Below, piece by piece: positions 1 through 34,093 of a stretch of DNA of 34,093 bases. Under the pieces are notes generated by a model that searched no databases, was not told the origin of the DNA, and saw only the letters and a list, made by a program, of their open reading frames with translations. Within the stretch, counting starts at the first letter, position 1. Every line of letters starts with the position of its first letter. The translations under genes were made by a program, and so were the position numbers. This stretch comes from Haloplanus natans DSM 17983. GTDB taxonomy: Archaea > Halobacteriota > Halobacteria > Halobacteriales > Haloferacaceae. The stretch spans positions 1-34,093 of the forward strand of contig NZ_ATYM01000004.1 of NCBI RefSeq assembly GCF_000427685.1, written 5' to 3'.

Positions 1-2258
1 CGGTCCGCGACCGCCTGTTTCAGACGTACCCTCGTGGGGTTGAAGCCGTTGCATTGCTACCTCCAAGCCCGCCGCCGGAGTGTTTCAGACGTACCCTCGT
101 GGGGTTGAAGCGGTTTAATAATCGTGCCGTCGGCTGCCACAACTTGTTTCAGACGTACCCTCGTGGGGTTGAAGCTACTACACCCTCTCGCGACGACGAC
201 CGCGGTAGCCGTTTCAGACGTACCCTCGTGGGGTTGAAGCGCCCTCGGCACTGCTACCGCTCGCCGCCGGGGTCATGGTTTCAGACGTACCCTCGTGGGG
301 TTGAAGCGTCGCCATCGTCGCCACACTCCCCCTACTCCGGCGTTTCAGACGTACCCTCGTGGGGTTGAAGCCGACCGCCGACCGACCACGACCGGGAGAT
401 ACGCGACGTTTCAGACGTACCCTCGTGGGGTTGAAGCCTCTGACCTTGACAAGTTGATTGTCTCTTGCCCAGCGTTTCAGACGTACCCTCGTGGGGTTGA
501 AGCGGCGTGTCGTGGTCGGACCCCGACGAATGGCGGAGTTTCAGACGTACCCTCGTGGGGTTGAAGCAGTCATCGTCTCACGGGGATAACGTTTGTCTCT
601 CGTTTCAGACGTACCCTCGTGGGGTTGAAGCGTGGCTATGACTACCTGCATGACATTATTTACGGGAGTTTCAGACGTACCCTCGTGGGGTTGAAGCTCC
701 CGGAATAATCGCAGTACGGCGGCGGGTTCGAAGTTTCAGACGTACCCTCGTGGGGTTGAAGCCAAACCCGAAGGTTGAATGTTGAGACTTGGGAAATAGT
801 TTCAGACGTACCCTCGTGGGGTTGAAGCTCAGCCTGGGAGGTCTCGATCATGACGTCGTCCCGGTTTCAGACGTACCCTCGTGGGGTTGAAGCCCCGTGT
901 TGTTTTGGGCCGCCAGATACCCGCTGGCGTTTCAGACGTACCCTCGTGGGGTTGAAGCGTAGGTGGCCATCGGTATGGAAACGTTCTGCAGTCGTTTCAG
1001 ACGTACCCTCGTGGGGTTGAAGCCCGGAGAAGGTCGCGTTCGAGACGCCCGACGGGCGGTTTCAGACGTACCCTCGTGGGGTTGAAGCGGTTTGTACGCG
1101 AGCCGTTCAATCAGGTGGAGCGCGGTTTCAGACGTACCCTCGTGGGGTTGAAGCGTCACACTTGCTAAGGGGATTGTCCCGCCCCGCGGTTTCAGACGTA
1201 CCCTCGTGGGGTTGAAGCGAGGCCTCGGTCGAGGAGCAGATCCGCCGCGACGCACGTTTCAGACGTACCCTCGTGGGGTTGAAGCCTCGCAGGAGATGCC
1301 GATGAGGCGGCTCGCGCCGGTTTCAGACGTACCCTCGTGGGGTTGAAGCTTCGACGCGACAAACAGGCGTCTTTAGCCCGTGCCGTTTCAGACGTACCCT
1401 CGTGGGGTTGAAGCTTCACCCGCGTCGCGGACGCCGTTGGCCGCCGCGCCGTTTCAGACGTACCCTCGTGGGGTTGAAGCGACATCGCACTCGTCGTTCG
1501 GGCAGACGTACGTGTGTTTCAGACGTACCCTCGTGGGGTTGAAGCCACCCCACCGCCGGGGTATATCGACGATTTACAGGGTTTCAGACGTACCCTCGTG
1601 GGGTTGAAGCCTGCCGACCCTGTGGGTCGACGTATTCTTGAGCCCGCGTTTCAGACGTACCCTCGTGGGGTTGAAGCGCCGCCTCGGACGTGCGGACGTA
1701 CAAGTCGGCCGTTTCAGACGTACCCTCGTGGGGTTGAAGCAACGGGACGCTGACGGGGTCGGAGCAAAGCGCGGTTTCAGACGTACCCTCGTGGGGTTGA
1801 AGCGGTCTGTGGTTCGAATCCGCTCCCGTCGTTGGGAACGGTTTCAGACGTACCCTCGTGGGGTTGAAGCCTATGTAAGAGGCATGAATCTCACCATGCG
1901 CCCGTGTTTCAGACGTACCCTCGTGGGGTTGAAGCCATCATTACCAGTAGGTGCGTCACCTATTACTAGTTTCAGACGTACCCTCGTGGGGTTGAAGCGA
2001 CGAGCGCGCCCTGCAGTTCCGGCAGCTCGCCCCGGTTTCAGACGTACCCTCGTGGGGTTGAAGCGTCGTGGGTGCGCGACAGTGAACGTGTCATAGTATC
2101 AGTTTCAGACGTACCCTCGTGGGGTTGAAGCATACCATGTTAGCTGATTGTGACCATCCCGAAGCGAGGTTTCAGACGTACCCTCGTGGGGTTGAAGCCG
2201 ATGACTGACCCGCGAATGAATAGCACCCGGCCGTTTCAGACGTACCCTCGTGGGGTTT
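1..2258 (+). CRISPR. CRISPR array 1, 35 repeats, type I-B
   Basis: A 30-bp repeat beginning GTTTCAGACGTACC and ending GGGGTTGAAGC occurs 35 times from position 17 to 2258, every 63-67 bp, with 34 complete spacers of about 33-37 nt. The array continues past the left edge, because positions 1-16 look like a partial spacer. The repeat ends in GTTGAAGC, the 8-nt 5' handle of haloarchaeal type I-B crRNAs, so transcription runs rightwards and the leader should lie outside the window to the left. All internal repeats look identical and only the last is damaged. The spacer at 1804-1840 resembles a tRNA T-arm. The same repeat forms array 2 beyond the cas operon, so both arrays should feed the same Cas proteins. 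Confidence 0.99.
2233..2258 (+). repeat. Truncated terminal repeat of array 1
   Basis: The last repeat matches the consensus for its first 25 bases, to about 2257. It then diverges where TTGAAGC is expected, reading TTTCATCG instead. Loss of the 3' end of the leader-distal repeat is common in CRISPR arrays and confirms that array 1 ends here with its old end facing the integrase gene. Confidence 0.9.
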
Positions 2259-20696: not shown

Positions 20697-21239
20697 TTAT
20701 GACCGCGACCCGACCTCACTTCCGGGTTTGAACTCGGTCAATTCCTCAATGCGCTGCTCAAGCTCGTCGACTTCCTGACGAAGCTCCTCGGCGTTGGGAT
20801 CGTCGCTCAGCGCCAACTGATCCTTCAGTCCCTGCAGTCGCGTCTCTTTGCGCTCCTGGTCGACGTCGGCTTTCCGAACGTACTCGCTCTCCTCGATCTC
20901 ATAGACAGCCGATTCGGAGAGACCGGTCACGTCCAGGGCGTCATCGACCTTCTCACGATCGACGGCCAGAATCCGCTCACGAGGGATCCCCGCATCCTCG
21001 AGGATGTCCAAGACCTCATCGTCATCCTTCAGCGAGCGATTGCGTCGACTCGTCCGTTGGACAGAGCCATAGGCTGTGGACCGGCTGGTTATGTTGGAAC
21101 CGCCCGCGCAGTACCTCACGCACGTCCTGCCGGAGCTCCCCAGCGTTGCGTTGCACATCAGACAAGAGCGTATAGAGATTGATGAGCGCCGGCGTCTCAT
21201 AATCGAGACCGCATTTTAGACGTGCCTTTGTGAGGTTGA
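20697..21239 (-). pseudogene. Frameshifted remnant of a haloarchaeal coiled-coil protein
   Basis: The C-terminal 115 residues read normally (RNRSLKDDDEVLDILEDAG, then VTGLSESAVYEIEESEYVRK and a coiled coil ending ELTEFKPGSEVGSRS). Upstream of about 21072 the sensible frame shifts by one base. The other frame gives CGLDYETPALINLYTLLSDV, then a helical stretch to HNQPVHS, and removing one C at about 21072 rejoins both parts. No start codon is evident. The frame runs back through the decayed CRISPR repeat at 21213-21242. So the gene is frameshifted and probably lacks its 5' end. I cannot name the family. Confidence 0.7.
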
Positions 21240-21242
21240 AGC
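21213..21242 (+). repeat. Stand-alone decayed CRISPR repeat
   Basis: Matches the array repeat at 24 of 30 positions, in the same orientation, ending GGTTGAAGC. All six differences are transitions (positions 1, 5, 12, 15, 17, 21), consistent with descent by mutation. No second repeat follows at spacer distance. It lies 27 bp left of the proposed creT control region and overlaps the 5' end of the pseudogene frame. Confidence 0.85.
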
Positions 21243-21268: not shown

Positions 21269-21290
21269 CCATATTGGTAGAAAAAATTAA
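21269..21290. promoter_or_regulatory. Candidate creT promoter with CreA-Cascade target site
   Basis: On the minus strand TTC (21282-21280) is followed by TACCAATATGG (21279-21269). The CreA-like spacer begins TACCAGTATGG, so 10 of 11 bases match and the only mismatch is at position 6, which type I seeds tolerate. TTC is an established PAM for haloarchaeal type I-B. On the + strand the site overlaps the BRE position of AAAAATTAA (21282-21290), a TATA-like box that would start transcription near 21312. Confidence 0.7.
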
Positions 21291-21311
21291 GTCGACACCG
21301 AGGAAATAGGC

Positions 21312-21375
21312 TGTTGATGAAGCCAATAATATGATGCTTGCCTCAGGAGAGTAGATATTCCTGATATCTACTCCA
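21312..21375 (+). ncRNA. creT: Candidate CreT toxin RNA with mini-ORF and hairpin
   Basis: Downstream of the TATA-like box, ATG AAG CCA ATA ATA TGA (21317-21334) encodes five residues with two tandem ATA isoleucine codons, rare in GC-rich haloarchaea. A perfect 10-bp hairpin follows (21349-21373, 5-nt loop). CreT of Haloarcula hispanica is a small RNA whose mini-ORF uses tandem rare arginine codons to sequester a scarce tRNA. Here an AUA-reading tRNA would be the analogous target. A second overlapping mini-ORF starts at 21331. The 5' end is inferred from TATA spacing and the 3' end from the hairpin. No homology search was possible. Confidence 0.55.
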
Positions 21376-21471
21376 GACCCTAGGTATGCAAGCACTGCAC
21401 CGAAACTACTGCGATAGGTGAGTACACGTCCAGCACTCATGATGGTTGTGGTTAGACAAGGCATCCACTTC

Positions 21472-21559
21472 GTATCAGATGAACGCAACTGCGGTTGAAG
21501 TTACCAGTATGGTGCCAACACCGTCACAAGTTTCAGATGAACTTCGGTGAGGTGGGTTC
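21472..21559 (+). ncRNA. creA: Candidate CreA antitoxin RNA (degenerate repeat-spacer-repeat)
   Basis: Repeat-like element 1 (21472-21501) matches 21 of 30 bases of the array repeat and keeps GGTTGAAG, the crRNA handle. A 28-nt spacer (21502-21529) follows. Repeat-like element 2 (21530-21559) matches 19 of 30 and keeps GTTTCAGA. Both share changes at positions 9 and 11 (GATGAA). Cas6 processing would yield a crRNA-like guide whose seed matches the creT promoter with a TTC PAM. This two-degenerate-repeat layout is that of CreA. It lies upstream of cas6; in H. hispanica the module is between cas6 and cas8b. The ORB core TTTCAGATGAA also resembles element 2, a competing reading. Confidence 0.72.
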
Positions 21560-21580
21560 TGGCATGTACTTCTCATCAGG

Positions 21581-21627
21581 AGAAAAGAATAATTACATAG
21601 GAACGGTATCCAAATCGACATAACACT
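21581..21627 (+). promoter_or_regulatory. Candidate promoter of the cas operon
   Basis: AAAAGAATAATTACAT at about 21582-21597 is the A/T-richest block before cas6 and sits 30-40 bp upstream of its GTG, which suits a TATA box with a short leader. It lies 22 bp beyond the CreA-like repeat, so the antitoxin transcript could run into the cas operon. Confidence 0.5.
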
Positions 21628-22434
21628 GTGAGACTACTAGCACGGCTACACGCGCGCGCTGATGCCGCATACGACAACGCGTATCATCACAAGCTCCGAG
21701 GTCGGATCTGGCGAGCGTTGCAGGGTACGGAGTACGAACAGAATCATGACGAAAACCGCCCACCGGGATTCAATTACAGTAACCCCTTCCCGCCGGGAGA
21801 TATGCAGGAAGGGGACGAGCGAACTCTGCTGATTTCAGCCCCCCAAGAGCAACTACTGGCCGATGTTGCAGAAGACCTGACCGCCGATCGCGAGCTCAAT
21901 ATCGGCCAGATGCCGTTCCATATCGACGAACTCACGTCACTGTCACCGGATGTCGGCGAACCAGGGAGCAGCGGGACGATCGAGACTGGCACTGGACTCC
22001 TCGTGCGCATCCCACCATGGCGTTGTGACGATTATGGAATTGAGAACCCCGGCGAAGAGGCGGTGTATTGGCAGCCAGAACATACAATCGAGCCACTGCG
22101 AGAGCAGCTCGAGGCGAATCTCGACCAGAAACACGATCTGTTCAGCCCGGAATACCTTCCGGGCCCAAGCGACACTGCGGGCGATCTCTTCGAGGGATAC
22201 GAGCTACTGAAGACGTTCGCCGTCCCGATTCAGGTAACCGCAGACCAGGAGCTAACCTTCGTGCTCTCGAAGTGGCAGTTCAACTACACCGTCAGAGACG
22301 ATGACCATCGACGCCACCTCAACCTCGCACTGGACTGCGGGCTCGGGGAACGAAACGCGCTGGGGCTGGGATTCTGTAACCTGGTCGAGAAGCGCAACCC
22401 GTACGGCGAACCCGCGGCGGAGGTCCACGGATGA
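21628..22434 (+). CDS. cas6: Cas6 crRNA-processing endonuclease
   Basis: A 268-aa RAMP endoribonuclease that cuts CRISPR transcripts within the repeat to leave an 8-nt handle. The C-terminal glycine-rich loop GLGERNALGLGFCN is the family hallmark, and His residues in NAYHHKLRG near the N terminus are catalytic candidates. The start is GTG 21628; no ATG precedes it in a suitable position. It overlaps cas8b by 4 nt and begins the type I-B operon. It would also have to process the CreA-like RNA just upstream. Confidence 0.95.
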   Translation: MRLLARLHARADAAYDNAYHHKLRGRIWRALQGTEYEQNHDENRPPGFNYSNPFPPGDMQEGDERTLLISAPQEQLLADVAEDLTADRELNIGQMPFHIDELTSLSPDVGEPGSSGTIETGTGLLVRIPPWRCDDYGIENPGEEAVYWQPEHTIEPLREQLEANLDQKHDLFSPEYLPGPSDTAGDLFEGYELLKTFAVPIQVTADQELTFVLSKWQFNYTVRDDDHRRHLNLALDCGLGERNALGLGFCNLVEKRNPYGEPAAEVHG

Positions 22435-24581
22435 GCCTGCTCCCCGAGCCGTCGACGTTCGAGAAGCGTTACAGCGACGACGAGAAGCTAGCAAGCGAGC
22501 TACCTGATCGACCGATCACCTCACTCCGCGACCTCCAGTACGTCTACGGCCGTCTGTACACGCTTGCGACCGCGGGGGGTGGCGAGTACGCGGCCTACCT
22601 GACGCCGGAGAAATCCACGGACCTGTTCGATGAACCGGAGAGCCTACTCTATCTCCGCATCGATCTGAGTGGGAACAAGCCCCGCCTCGACCCCGAGCAA
22701 CCGATCGGTGTCGAGAGCTACGGTGAGGAGAAAGTCGAGGCTGTCGCCCACTCGTGGTTTAACGCCGCAAAAGGGTTCGACCACAGTGTCACCCACCGAA
22801 CGGGCAAGAACAAAGAGCCAGAGAAGGTCGCGGAGTATCTCCACGAACGGCTCACCGCGTGGGCGGCCGACGACGTGATTCAAGAGGCTGTCGCCGATCA
22901 CGAAGACGGATGGATCGTCGACGCGCTCGCTGCACTCGGCGAGAGTGAGGGGCTTAGAGAACGCATCGAGACGGCCGTCGACGAACAGCTCGACGGGAAG
23001 ACCACGGCGCTCACGACTGTCGCAGTCAAACTCGATTCTGACGGTGAGTATCTCCTCCCGGGTGAGGCGAGTTCGGTGTTCAACGAAGCAATGCGAGCGC
23101 GCAAGCGATCGAAGCTCGTCTCGAAGGGAGAGGCCACGAACTCCATCGGTGAGGCAACCGATCTCGTCACCGGCAATCGAGGCCCGACTGTCGGGACAGC
23201 TGAGGATCCGCTGAACTACTTCCTCGGCAAGCAGCTCGAGAAGTTCCCCGGGTTCGATCCAGACGAGGCGTGGCGGACGCACCCAGTCTCGGAAGACGTC
23301 GCCGTGACGCTGATGAACGCGCGCACGTTCGTCGACGCCTGCGACTACTACACTATGGGAGCGAACGTCTACTACCTCCCGTACTTCTTCGGGCGATTAC
23401 AGCCGACAGAGGCCCGAGAGCTCTATCGGATGCTCTATGCCGTCGTACGGGAGCAGGATATGACCCCGATTCAGCACGTCTATCAACAGTTCCAGAATGA
23501 TCCGGCGCTACAGGAGTACGGAGAGCGGTTCCGCTTCTACGTCGCGGCCGTGATGGAGCACCAGACGAAGCGATTCGACGTGTTCGGCGATACACTCGAC
23601 GGATCACTGATGTCTCCCGTGGAGTTAATCGGTAGCCATATCGACGTTCTGGAGTCGCCGCTGTTCGACGTTCATGGCGACGCTGAACGGGACACCCCCG
23701 AACTCAGGCCAGCATTTCCAGCACCAGAGAGTTGGGACATCTTCGTACCTAGCGAACACGCTCTCTTAGGCACCCTCGCGACTGGGTGGTACTTCGAACA
23801 GACGTTCGCGCCGGCCGACGACGATGACGCCAGCGCCGACGACTACCGGATCCGCGCGCTCGTGGCTGTGCTCTCGGGCGAACCGCTTGATGTCGAGACG
23901 GTCCTCACAGAGTACGTGGAACGACTGCTCGAGGACGAGGGCGAGGAGTTCCCGAGCTTCCGTGTCTCCGCACAGTACGCACAGCTCTGTGCGCTCGCCG
24001 AAGCGGGGCTTCTCACCGGACGCGACGCGTACAAACCGGTTGCAGAGCCGCGGCAGTTGACACACAACCATACAGACGATATGCAACAGGACACACCAGC
24101 CCGAGCTGACGGCGGGAACGTCGCTGCGGCTCGGGAGACGAAGCTCGAACAGTTCCTTGAACAGACGCCAGCGCTCGCGGAGGATCAGCCCGAGCGGCGT
24201 GGCAGTTTCCTCCTCGGCGCACTGGTCGGTCAAGTAACCGGCTACCAGCAAGTCAGTGAGGGGCGCTCGACGACGCTAATCGACCAGTACCCGATCAAGG
24301 CCGTCACAGAGTCGAAGCTGAAGCGCCTTGCCAGCGACGTGCTCGACAAGAACATCGTCTACTCTCGGGAGAACAATATGGCGGGGACGATGTACAGCGA
24401 GGTTGTCGATCGGCTGGTGACGACACTCCCCCAGATCGATATCGACGGCGACTGGGAACTCGACACAACGGACCTTCGATTCTACTACTCGCTCGGGGTT
24501 GCCTACGGGATGAACAACTGGGCGAGCAACGACGACGAACAGGCCGATGGCCAGCCCGCAACCGAGGAGGAAGAAGCATGA
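22431..24581 (+). CDS. cas8b: Cas8b, large subunit of type I-B Cascade
   Basis: A 716-aa acidic protein whose length and position between cas6 and cas7 match Cas8b of haloarchaeal type I-B (Csh1-like). Recognisable stretches include NPYFLG-like NYFLGKQLEKFPGFDP near residue 262 and the helical C-terminal part from about 551. Cas8b recognises the PAM and helps load Cas3. In type I-B systems a small subunit (Cas11b) can be translated from an internal start near the 3' end; ATG 24081 (residue 551) would give about 166 residues of suitable size. It overlaps both neighbours by 4 nt. Confidence 0.93.
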   Translation: MSLLPEPSTFEKRYSDDEKLASELPDRPITSLRDLQYVYGRLYTLATAGGGEYAAYLTPEKSTDLFDEPESLLYLRIDLSGNKPRLDPEQPIGVESYGEEKVEAVAHSWFNAAKGFDHSVTHRTGKNKEPEKVAEYLHERLTAWAADDVIQEAVADHEDGWIVDALAALGESEGLRERIETAVDEQLDGKTTALTTVAVKLDSDGEYLLPGEASSVFNEAMRARKRSKLVSKGEATNSIGEATDLVTGNRGPTVGTAEDPLNYFLGKQLEKFPGFDPDEAWRTHPVSEDVAVTLMNARTFVDACDYYTMGANVYYLPYFFGRLQPTEARELYRMLYAVVREQDMTPIQHVYQQFQNDPALQEYGERFRFYVAAVMEHQTKRFDVFGDTLDGSLMSPVELIGSHIDVLESPLFDVHGDAERDTPELRPAFPAPESWDIFVPSEHALLGTLATGWYFEQTFAPADDDDASADDYRIRALVAVLSGEPLDVETVLTEYVERLLEDEGEEFPSFRVSAQYAQLCALAEAGLLTGRDAYKPVAEPRQLTHNHTDDMQQDTPARADGGNVAAARETKLEQFLEQTPALAEDQPERRGSFLLGALVGQVTGYQQVSEGRSTTLIDQYPIKAVTESKLKRLASDVLDKNIVYSRENNMAGTMYSEVVDRLVTTLPQIDIDGDWELDTTDLRFYYSLGVAYGMNNWASNDDEQADGQPATEEEEA

Positions 24582-25699: not shown

Positions 25700-26490
25700 T
25701 GGCCCAAGAGTCACTCGAAGGCAGGACTGACGAGGACGACGGGCTCCCAGAGACGTGTCTCTCATTCGAACTCCGCGGGGAGTGGGGGCACTTCCGACGG
25801 GTCGAGGGGAACATCGTCAAACAGACGTATCGGATCATTCCCCGGACGACCGTCGCCGGTCTCGTCGCCGCGATGCTTGGGTTGGACCGGGACAGCTACT
25901 ACGAGGCGTTCAGCCAGAACGTGTCGGCTGTCGCGGTGGAGCCGATCGACGAGCTCCGAGCGATCAATATGCCGATGAACACGCTCTCGACGGCCAAAGA
26001 GCACATGACGACGATGCCCAGCCGCGGGCATGCACGGATCTCGATGCCGGACCCGTCGGAGCTCCGCCAGCAACACAACTACGAGGTACTGGTCGAACCG
26101 GCCTACCGTGTCGACCTTCAGCTCGCGAACGACGATCTCCGAAACCGACTGCAGGACCGACTCCGCGATGGGACGTCCTACTACCCGCCGAGTCTCGGCC
26201 TTTCGGAGCATCTTGCAGAGGTCACGTATCTCGGCGAGTTCGAGGTAACGCCACACGAGCGCGAGACTACCGATGTCGATTCGGCGGTGCTCGAAGCCGT
26301 CGATAGCGTCGAGCTCACTCCTGAAACGGAGGTCAAAGTCGAACGCTCACCGGCGTTTATGACGGCCGACGAAGGTGGTCGGACGACGACGGCGTTCCAG
26401 TCGATTGCGTACGCAACTGGAGCGGAGCCACTCCGAGTACATGATGTCAAGACCCACGAGGTCGACGGCCGACGGGTGATGTTCTCGTGA
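25699..26490 (+). CDS. cas5: Cas5, crRNA 5'-handle binding subunit
   Basis: A 263-aa RAMP protein of the type I-B Cas5 family. ETCLSFELRGEWGHFRRVEG near residues 18-37 and YRIIPRTTVAGLVAAMLGL near 43-61 are characteristic. It caps the 5' handle of the crRNA in Cascade. I start at ATG 25699, which overlaps the cas7 TGA; GTG 25696 would add one residue. The cas3 start is 19 bp after its stop, the largest gap within the operon. Confidence 0.94.
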   Translation: MAQESLEGRTDEDDGLPETCLSFELRGEWGHFRRVEGNIVKQTYRIIPRTTVAGLVAAMLGLDRDSYYEAFSQNVSAVAVEPIDELRAINMPMNTLSTAKEHMTTMPSRGHARISMPDPSELRQQHNYEVLVEPAYRVDLQLANDDLRNRLQDRLRDGTSYYPPSLGLSEHLAEVTYLGEFEVTPHERETTDVDSAVLEAVDSVELTPETEVKVERSPAFMTADEGGRTTTAFQSIAYATGAEPLRVHDVKTHEVDGRRVMFS

Positions 26491-31096: not shown

Positions 31097-34093
31097 GTTT
31101 CAGACGTACCCTCGTGGGGTTGAAGCGTCCCGTCGACGGTCGCGTCGATTGGGCGCTGGAAGTTGTTTCAGACGTACCCTCGTGGGGTTGAAGCCCTCGG
31201 ACAGGGCGCGGTCGACGGGGTCGGCGCCGGTTTCAGACGTACCCTCGTGGGGTTGAAGCGGCGACCGTCACGTTGCCCTGTCCGTCGAGCGATACGTTTC
31301 AGACGTACCCTCGTGGGGTTGAAGCGACCCCTCGACCATCCAGTCCGTGTAGTCGTCGTAGTTTCAGACGTACCCTCGTGGGGTTGAAGCGACAAACGCA
31401 TGAACGTGCTGCACCGGACCGAGACGAGTTTCAGACGTACCCTCGTGGGGTTGAAGCGCGTGGTGGCGGTGACGGGCGGTTGGATCGGCGTTTCAGACGT
31501 ACCCTCGTGGGGTTGAAGCGCCGACCAGGTCGGTGACGAGCCAACGCCGAGCGAGGTTTCAGACGTACCCTCGTGGGGTTGAAGCGTGACGAGCGGGCCG
31601 CCATCCGCCGCGATACTGGAGTTTCAGACGTACCCTCGTGGGGTTGAAGCGCGGTGTATGCCCGAGCTCCCGGACCAAGTCTGGAAGTTTCAGACGTACC
31701 CTCGTGGGGTTGAAGCTCCCCGTTGAGGACACCTGCCGACTCCAAGCCGTGGTTTCAGACGTACCCTCGTGGGGTTGAAGCACGTCTACCCGATCTACGA
31801 CTGGGCCGTCGAAGACGTTTCAGACGTACCCTCGTGGGGTTGAAGCCACCCAACGGTCTTGCGGTTGTCCGCGGAGTAGACGAGTTTCAGACGTACCCTC
31901 GTGGGGTTGAAGCCACCCCCGCCCGGTGTGCTGGCGCCCGGGCGTCGCGTTTCAGACGTACCCTCGTGGGGTTGAAGCAGGCGACGAATACACAGTCCGC
32001 ATCTGTTGCCCACGTTTCAGACGTACCCTCGTGGGGTTGAAGCCCCGTCGAACTCACATGGGCGGAATGGAACCGGCTCGTTTCAGACGTACCCTCGTGG
32101 GGTTGAAGCCCGTCGTTGAGAGTTGCGTCGATCTTCTGAGTGCCGGTTTCAGACGTACCCTCGTGGGGTTGAAGCTGTCCGTACTGTGGCGACGCCGTCG
32201 ACGACGATCAGGTTTCAGACGTACCCTCGTGGGGTTGAAGCCATCCACCTGATGACCGTGGACTTAGCACAACCGAGTTTCAGACGTACCCTCGTGGGGT
32301 TGAAGCCTCCAAAGCATCATCGTCTCGCTGCATCACACGGCGTTTCAGACGTACCCTCGTGGGGTTGAAGCCAGTCCGACGTAGTGAACGCCGAGGCTGG
32401 CGCGGTTTCAGACGTACCCTCGTGGGGTTGAAGCCACCAGTCGTCGACGCGGCCGTCAAGCGTGAGTGTGTTTCAGACGTACCCTCGTGGGGTTGAAGCG
32501 GCTGGTCGAAGGGCAACTGGGCGTCGCTGACGGGGCGTTTCAGACGTACCCTCGTGGGGTTGAAGCGACGCCGACGCCCACGACGATCTCGACGTCGGCG
32601 TGCGTTTCAGACGTACCCTCGTGGGGTTGAAGCAACCGGGCTGCCGACGCCCTCGAATCCGCAGACGGCGGTTTCAGACGTACCCTCGTGGGGTTGAAGC
32701 TCACTGGTGGCAGTCGGTATCACGTCGTCTGTTCGGAGTTTCAGACGTACCCTCGTGGGGTTGAAGCGGTGAGTGTGCCCGTGATGCTCAGGTCGCCCGT
32801 GTTTCAGACGTACCCTCGTGGGGTTGAAGCGGTCGCGCGGGCGTCGATACCCTCGGTGCGGGAGGTGTTTCAGACGTACCCTCGTGGGGTTGAAGCGTTC
32901 AGAGGGGGTACGCGTGGACGCCCGGGCGCCCGCGTTTCAGACGTACCCTCGTGGGGTTGAAGCCAATCGTGGACGATAGTTTTCTCGGCGACGCGCTGCG
33001 TTTCAGACGTACCCTCGTGGGGTTGAAGCGAGCAGTGGGCCTCCGACATCGAGACCGAGTCGTCGTTTCAGACGTACCCTCGTGGGGTTGAAGCCGCAAG
33101 GGGATGGTCGCCGCCGTCGCCTTCGACGGCGTTTCAGACGTACCCTCGTGGGGTTGAAGCGCTACTCCAACAACGGACCGTCTATCTGCTCCCCGTTTCA
33201 GACGTACCCTCGTGGGGTTGAAGCCACCCACGGCCGGTGTGCTGGCGCCCGGGCGTCGCGGTTTCAGACGTACCCTCGTGGGGTTGAAGCTGCCGGTGGC
33301 TCCCGCGGCGGCTGTGGTGTTCGGTCGTTTCAGACGTACCCTCGTGGGGTTGAAGCGGCGTCACGCTCGCGAAGCCCTACAGTACCTCGAAGCGTTTCAG
33401 ACGTACCCTCGTGGGGTTGAAGCGAGGAGAGCGTCGACGGCCTCCGACTCACCGCGCTCGTTTCAGACGTACCCTCGTGGGGTTGAAGCGCCTCCGACGG
33501 GAGCGAGGAGAAGACAACCGTCGAGTTTCAGACGTACCCTCGTGGGGTTGAAGCCTCGCCACGGTGGCCGTGTCGAAGTACGCGGATGTTTCAGACGTAC
33601 CCTCGTGGGGTTGAAGCGGCAGGTCTAGGATGTCGTCTGGGTCTGCCATGTTGGGTTTCAGACGTACCCTCGTGGGGTTGAAGCGTCGATCCGAGTCACA
33701 GCCACCCCACCTTGTCGACGTTTCAGACGTACCCTCGTGGGGTTGAAGCCTTGAGTGGTGTGACGACAACAATATGACCCACAGTTTCAGACGTACCCTC
33801 GTGGGGTTGAAGCAAGAAGTGTCGGCGGTGTGGGCTCCCCCGGGCGACGTTTCAGACGTACCCTCGTGGGGTTGAAGCACCTCGCCGACGCTAACAGTCG
33901 GGCGAACGTCGTGTTTCAGACGTACCCTCGTGGGGTTGAAGCGTGCCTCGCCCCACGGGACCCCGTCGCCGTGGTCGGGTGGTTTCAGACGTACCCTCGT
34001 GGGGTTGAAGCGCCTCCCGGTTGGTGTACGTCTCGCCGCCGAAGCGGTTTCAGACGTACCCTCGTGGGGTTGAAGCTATAGGCTGTCGGCGGC
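31097..34093 (+). CRISPR. CRISPR array 2, at least 46 repeats, type I-B
   Basis: The same 30-bp repeat as array 1 occurs 46 times from 31097 to 34076, every 61-67 bp, with 45 complete spacers and a partial one at the right edge. The array is read rightwards from the leader next to cas2, so the newest spacers are near 31.1 kb. All repeats appear identical. The spacers at 31914-31948 and 33225-33260 are nearly the same. Identical repeats and an intact adaptation module suggest recent activity. Confidence 0.99.

What the first reader, a model, noticed from the sequence alone, without database searches (positions are those of the whole stretch)
21269..21559. Candidate CreTA RNA toxin-antitoxin guarding the type I-B Cas operon
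Seen in sequence: two degenerate copies of the array repeat (21/30 and 19/30) flank a 28-nt spacer just upstream of cas6. The first 11 spacer bases match 21279-21269 on the minus strand at all but position 6, directly beside TTC. The matched site overlaps a TATA/BRE-like sequence, followed by a mini-ORF and hairpin. Established: in Haloarcula hispanica a crRNA-like CreA with two degenerate repeats guides Cascade by a short seed match to repress CreT, a tRNA-sequestering toxin RNA; haloarchaeal I-B uses TTC and tolerates mismatch at seed position 6. Inference: this is a divergent CreTA upstream of cas6 that makes Cascade loss toxic.
Basis: partly seen in the sequence, partly recalled or inferred. 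Interest (0 to 1): 0.92.

Follow-up and report, generated by a model that had tools for sequence, protein, structure and literature searches.

The report
Known CRISPR-guarding RNA toxin–antitoxin (CreTA)
A salt-loving archaeon carries, beside its CRISPR immune genes, a tiny RNA toxin kept silent by a CRISPR-like guide RNA, so that losing the immune system would poison the cell; the reading is right, but this module belongs to a published, experimentally tested family, and this strain's copy is named in that paper.

Summary
Two degenerate repeats (21/30, 19/30) flank a 28-nt guide. Its positions 1-5 and 7-11 match a site beside TTC in the promoter of a mini-ORF (10/10 critical bases; 0 of 20,000 simulated sequences reach this).

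The interpretation (CreTA) is supported, but the module is not "divergent". It is a close homolog of the Halobacterium hubeiense CreTA tested in NAR 2021 (PMC8501985): 91% identical, with the same mini-ORF AUG-AAG-CCA-AUA-AUA-UGA, seed, target and PAM-to-AUG distance. The genome identifies as Haloplanus natans DSM 17983 through its tRNA cluster, and that strain is one of four homologs named in the paper's Fig. 6B. The toxin very probably sequesters tRNA-Ile(CAU), not the Arg tRNA of Haloarcula hispanica.

Not in the text I read: a third fossil repeat (21213-21242, 24/30) shows creTA abuts the end of an old CRISPR array; one relative has a mixed AGA-AUA mini-ORF; relatives that lost creT have mutated seeds, an interrupted creA or no creTA.

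Among six intact modules, target position 6 varies while the ten critical positions and PAM never do. Verdict: already known.

The parts
21213..21242 (+). psiR0: fossil CRISPR repeat (24/30, 5' handle 8/8), end of a lost array just upstream of creT; not part of the published module
21269..21279 (-). CreA target (protospacer seed TACCAATATGG), positions 1-5 and 7-11 match psiS
21280..21282 (-). PAM TTC (GAA on + strand), inside the purine-rich BRE-like stretch
21280..21291 (+). BRE/TATA-like promoter of creT (GAAAAAATTAAG); GAA-to-ATG distance 37 nt in all six intact modules
   Evidence: promoter assignment by analogy with PMC8501985
21317..21334 (+). creT mini-ORF ATG AAG CCA ATA ATA TGA (two rare AUA codons), predicted leaderless
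   Evidence: identical to H. hubeiense creT
21349..21373 (+). creT stem-loop (11-bp arms 21349-21359 / 21363-21373)
21472..21501 (+). psiR1, first degenerate repeat of creA (gives 5' handle GUUGAAGU)
21502..21529 (+). psiS, creA guide TACCAGTATGGTGCCAACACCGTCACAA
21530..21559 (+). psiR2, second degenerate repeat of creA (gives 22-nt 3' handle)
21494..21551 (+). predicted mature CreA RNA (8-nt handle + 28-nt guide + 22-nt handle)
   Evidence: by homology with the sRNA-seq result of H. hubeiense CreA (PMC8501985)
21628..22434 (+). cas6
   Evidence: TIGR01877 above cut-off
22431..24581 (+). cas8b (Csh1), type I-B
   Evidence: TIGR02591
24578..25699 (+). cas7 (Csh2), type I-B
   Evidence: TIGR02590
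25696..26490 (+). cas5b
   Evidence: TIGR02592
26510..29197 (+). cas3
   Evidence: TIGR01587 and TIGR01596
29194..29739 (+). cas4
   Evidence: TIGR00372
29709..30734 (+). cas1 (type I-B)
   Evidence: TIGR03641
30735..30995 (+). probable cas2 (86 aa), by position and size only

Best explanation
This is a CreTA module of the H. hubeiense type. The promoter at 21280-21291 makes a small leaderless RNA, creT, whose mini-ORF AUG-AAG-CCA-AUA-AUA-UGA with the following stem-loop ties up the rare AUA-decoding tRNA-Ile(CAU) and stops growth. The downstream creA is cut by Cas6 within psiR1 and psiR2 into a crRNA-like RNA. That RNA guides Cascade (Cas6-8b-7-5) to the creT promoter by PAM TTC plus seed positions 1-5 and 7-11, a match that represses but is too short to lead to cleavage, and so silences creT. 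If any Cascade gene is lost, creT is released and the cell is poisoned. Shown here: anatomy, conservation, seed-target rule, intact Cascade genes, homology to the tested module. Inferred: transcription start, processing, repression, tRNA sequestration in this strain.
For: Anatomy and significance. The match to the experimentally tested H. hubeiense JI20-1 locus (NZ_LN831303.1) is 91% over 363 nt of creTA, 87.7% when the array remnant is included; mini-ORF, seed and target bases are identical. In that module mutational, sRNA-seq and tRNA-rescue experiments established each step (PMC8501985). Six intact modules keep all 10 critical seed positions, the PAM and the 37-nt GAA-to-ATG spacing. Target position 6 takes A, G or C, and pairing past position 11 is 3-9 of 17, close to the 4 expected by chance in most. 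Modules without creT have mutated seeds or lost creA: L005 is changed at positions 3 and 10, L006 at position 4 with psiR2 interrupted, L007 and L008 lack creTA. AUA is 0.99 per 1000 codons in the window's cas genes against 22.3 for AUC, and TiaS, which makes the AUA-reading tRNA, is in the genome. All four Cascade genes are present.
Against: No RNA or genetic data for this strain. psiR2 on its own is little above chance (19/30). The tRNA-Ile(CAU) gene could not be told apart from the other CAU tRNAs with ARAGORN. The stem-loop shows no compensatory changes because the aligned sequences are too alike.
Confidence: 0.95

Rival explanations
1. CreR-type autoregulation: the guide RNA directs Cascade to the cas6 promoter to tune cas expression, and no toxin is involved.
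For: creA lies just upstream of cas6, and a separate promoter-like stretch (21575-21595) precedes cas6; relatives that lost creTA keep it. CreR as a class is reviewed in PMC12737573.
Against: The only PAM+seed match in the window is in the creT promoter; nothing else in the creTA-cas6 stretch of the window exceeds 5 of 10. A toxin gene identical in its mini-ORF to a proven toxin sits directly behind the target.
Confidence: 0.03
2. A decayed, non-functional remnant of CreTA.
For: Decayed relatives exist (L005, L006).
Against: In this copy the PAM, seed, promoter spacing, mini-ORF, stem-loop and both handles are all intact, unlike the decayed ones.
Confidence: 0.04
3. An ordinary two-repeat mini-CRISPR whose spacer came from a virus, with a chance match to the promoter.
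For: The architecture is repeat-spacer-repeat.
Against: A 28-nt guide is shorter than the 32-39 nt of the 78 array spacers. Simulated chance of the seed match is below 1 in 20,000. The same guide seed and target are conserved in six genomes of five genera, and no array spacer matches the window at PAM+10/10.
Confidence: 0.005

Closest known systems
Halobacterium hubeiense CreTA (Cheng et al. 2021, NAR, PMC8501985)
   Same: Same position upstream of cas6, two degenerate repeats, same seed and target, leaderless mini-ORF AUG-AAG-CCA-AUA-AUA-UGA, stem-loop, TTC PAM; 91% identical over the creTA stretch. The paper's Fig. 6B legend names Haloplanus natans DSM 17983 as one of four close homologs, and the window's genome matches that strain.
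   Different: A few bases in the promoter and in psiR2. In H. hubeiense psiR0 has lost part of its 5' handle.
Haloarcula hispanica CreTA (Li et al. 2021, Science, as described in PMC8501985)
   Same: CreA-guided Cascade represses a tRNA-sequestering RNA toxin through seed positions 1-5 and 7-11.
   Different: There it lies between cas6 and cas8, has one repeat, an SD motif and AGA codons (tRNA-Arg UCU). Here it lies upstream of cas6, has two repeats, is leaderless and has AUA codons.
CreR (RNA-guided cas autoregulation; reviewed in PMC12737573)
   Same: crRNA-like RNA using Cascade as a repressor.
   Different: CreR targets the cas promoter; here no match to it was found.

Membership tests
CreTA (H. 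hubeiense group) | Guide flanked by two divergent degenerate repeats beside a type I cas operon | tested here: met
   21/30 and 19/30 to the array repeat, 18/30 to each other; type I-B operon follows
CreTA (H. hubeiense group) | psiR1 keeps the 8-nt 5' handle better than psiR2; psiR2 keeps the first 22 nt better | tested here: met
   handle 7/8 vs 4/8; first 22 nt 14/22 vs 15/22, the second only by one base
CreTA (H. hubeiense group) | Seed 1-5 and 7-11 complementary to the creT promoter next to a TTC PAM | tested here: met
   10/10, unique in the window, conserved in six genomes
CreTA (H. hubeiense group) | Leaderless mini-ORF with two consecutive rare codons followed by a stem-loop | tested here: met
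   mini-ORF sequence identical; 11-bp stem; 'leaderless' rests on the 37-nt spacing and homology
CreTA (H. hubeiense group) | Cas6-dependent CreA RNA with 8-nt and 22-nt handles | not testable with these tools
   needs small-RNA sequencing
CreTA (H. hubeiense group) | creT toxic without Cascade, relieved by tRNA-Ile(CAU) | not testable with these tools
   shown for H. hubeiense in PMC8501985; AUA rarity and TiaS presence checked here
Haloarcula hispanica-type CreTA | Single repeat, SD motif, AGA codons, between cas6 and cas8 | tested here: not met
   two repeats, AUA codons, upstream of cas6
CreR | Guide matches the cas promoter with a PAM | tested here: not met
   second-best PAM+seed match on the target strand of the locus is 5/10, and no other site in the window exceeds 7/10

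The most novel reading that the evidence does not exclude
The H. hubeiense-type CreTA arose in place from the last units of a CRISPR array. A trail of increasingly degenerate repeats (live array in L004; fossil psiR0, and a second one in three relatives) still leads straight into creT. The toxin codons then drifted between AUA-AUA and AGA-AGA through a mixed AGA-AUA form that survives in one relative (L088).
Probability: 0.35. Interest if true: 0.35.

Novelty: already known. Interest (0 to 1): 0.2.

Why it matters
CreTA explains why costly CRISPR-Cas systems are hard to lose. This locus adds no new principle, since the strain is already listed as a homolog. Comparing its relatives gives natural evidence for the seed rule (position 6 free, ten positions fixed), shows that guide and toxin decay together, and suggests where such modules come from: the end of an array next to cas6.

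Tried and rejected
A scan of genome contigs with the mini-ORF pattern gave 66 stretches, nearly all chance matches in unrelated genomes; only Halorubrum amylolyticum ZC67 and Halorubrum sp. Atlit-26R were taken as real. psiR0 was tested as a further guide (CreR-like): its seed has one 9/10 match at 26325, inside cas5, and none in a promoter, so I treat it as a fossil. Array spacers were tested for self-matches in the window outside the arrays: none at PAM+10/10. tRNA-Ile(CAU) was sought among 53 tRNA matches, but the CAU tRNAs could not be assigned with confidence. Weak BLAST hits L009-L013 and L015-L018 (E > 1e-4) were not pursued.

Full report
Observation. psiR1 (21472-21501, 21/30), psiS (28 nt, 21502-21529) and psiR2 (21530-21559, 19/30) are present. 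The guide TACCAGTATGG matches the minus strand at 21279-21269 except at position 6, beside TTC. The match of PAM plus 10 critical positions is unique in the 34-kb window, and none of 20,000 Markov sequences of the same 441-nt region reaches it. A 19/30 repeat such as psiR2 would be expected about 0.65 times per 28.7 kb; it is credible because of its register and conservation.

Surroundings. A type I-B operon follows: cas6, cas8b, cas7, cas5, cas3, cas4, cas1, then an 86-aa frame in the place of cas2. CRISPR arrays with the repeat GTTTCAGACGTACCCTCGTGGGGTTGAAGC lie at both ends of the 34,093-base contig.

Identity with a published module. The mini-ORF at 21317-21334 reads ATG AAG CCA ATA ATA TGA. 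The paper on Halobacterium hubeiense CreTA describes a six-codon, leaderless mini-ORF with AAG CCA between the start codon and two AUA codons, a 12-nt inverted repeat, two degenerate repeats, seed positions 1-5 and 7-11, TTC PAM, and a position upstream of the cas operon (PMC8501985). I retrieved that locus, H. hubeiense JI20-1 plasmid pSTJ001, NZ_LN831303.1. It is 91% identical to the window over 363 nt, with identical mini-ORF and identical seed and target bases. The window's genome is 3.80 Mb with a tRNA cluster starting at C1:401628. PMC6333295 lists Haloplanus natans DSM 17983, 3.8 Mb, with a tRNA cluster at 401627-408099 of ATYM01000003.1. So the window is almost certainly that strain, which PMC8501985 names as a close homolog in Fig. 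6B.

Comparison. Intact modules were found in six genomes: the window, H. hubeiense, Halorubrum amylolyticum ZC67, Halorubrum sp. Atlit-26R, an AGA-AGA variant (L004, probably Halobonum tyrrellensis, by the paper's description), and a mixed AGA-AUA variant (L088) that the paper's text does not mention. All keep 10/10 critical seed positions, the TTC PAM and a 37-nt GAA-to-ATG distance. The target's position 6 is A, G or C against a constant G in the guide, and beyond position 11 there are only 3-9 matches of 17. In modules without a working creT the guide is no longer kept: L005 has seed changes at 3 and 10 and a ruined mini-ORF; L006 (Halobacterium sp. DL1) has a change at 4 and a 448-bp insert with inverted ends and an 8-bp duplication GATGAACT in psiR2; L007 (Salarchaeum sp. 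JOR-1) and L008 have lost creTA but keep the cas6 promoter. The RNA-model survey found intact modules in few genomes: 4 of 170 in the window's family and 1 of 26 in the family of H. hubeiense, plus the decayed L005.

Mechanism. By homology to the tested module, Cascade with CreA represses creT, and creT sequesters tRNA-Ile(CAU). Supporting facts here are the rarity of AUA (3 codons, 0.99 per 1000, in the cas genes), the presence of TiaS and all four Cascade genes. Processing, repression and toxicity in this strain are inferred.

Rivals. CreR-type autoregulation predicts a guide match in the cas6 promoter; none was found. A decayed module predicts broken elements; none is broken here. A plain mini-CRISPR does not explain the conserved promoter match.

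Beyond the finding. A third degenerate repeat, psiR0, lies at 21213-21242 (24/30, handle 8/8). In H. hubeiense, H. amylolyticum and Atlit-26R a second fossil lies 40 nt further upstream, and in L004 an array of at least four repeats runs directly into creT. The module thus sits at the trailing end of an array. This fits the paper's view that creA descends from a minimal CRISPR, and adds a place of origin; I did not find it mentioned in the main-text parts I read, and figures and supplements were not available to me.

Verdict.

Noticed in passing
window 21213-21242; L031 1153-1252; L043 3510-3609; L003 1878-1977 (minus strand); L004 51-273: Degenerate CRISPR repeats immediately upstream of creT: one in the window, two in three relatives, and a live array of at least four repeats in L004. 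creTA lies at the trailing end of an array.
   Followed up: partly
L088 1568-1585 (minus strand): Mixed mini-ORF ATG AAG CCA AGA ATA TGA, between the AUA-AUA and AGA-AGA toxins, in a module otherwise intact.
   Followed up: partly
L043 3636-3690: In Halorubrum sp. Atlit-26R the creT promoter is duplicated in tandem; the upstream copy lacks the PAM (AAA for GAA) and seed position 4.
   Followed up: no
L006 1604-2051: 448-bp insert with inverted ends GGCTCTGTTGAAATCC and 8-bp duplication GATGAACT interrupts psiR2 in Halobacterium sp. DL1, which has also lost creT.
   Followed up: partly
window 1-2198 and 31097-34093: The contig begins and ends within CRISPR arrays of the same repeat, so the assembly probably broke there and neither array is complete.
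   Followed up: no
G000:C1 401628-408100: Extra tRNA gene cluster outside the main chromosomal contig; it holds a CAU tRNA, but ARAGORN found no Arg-UCU tRNA in it. Whether such clusters could soften tRNA-sequestering toxins is open.
   Followed up: partly
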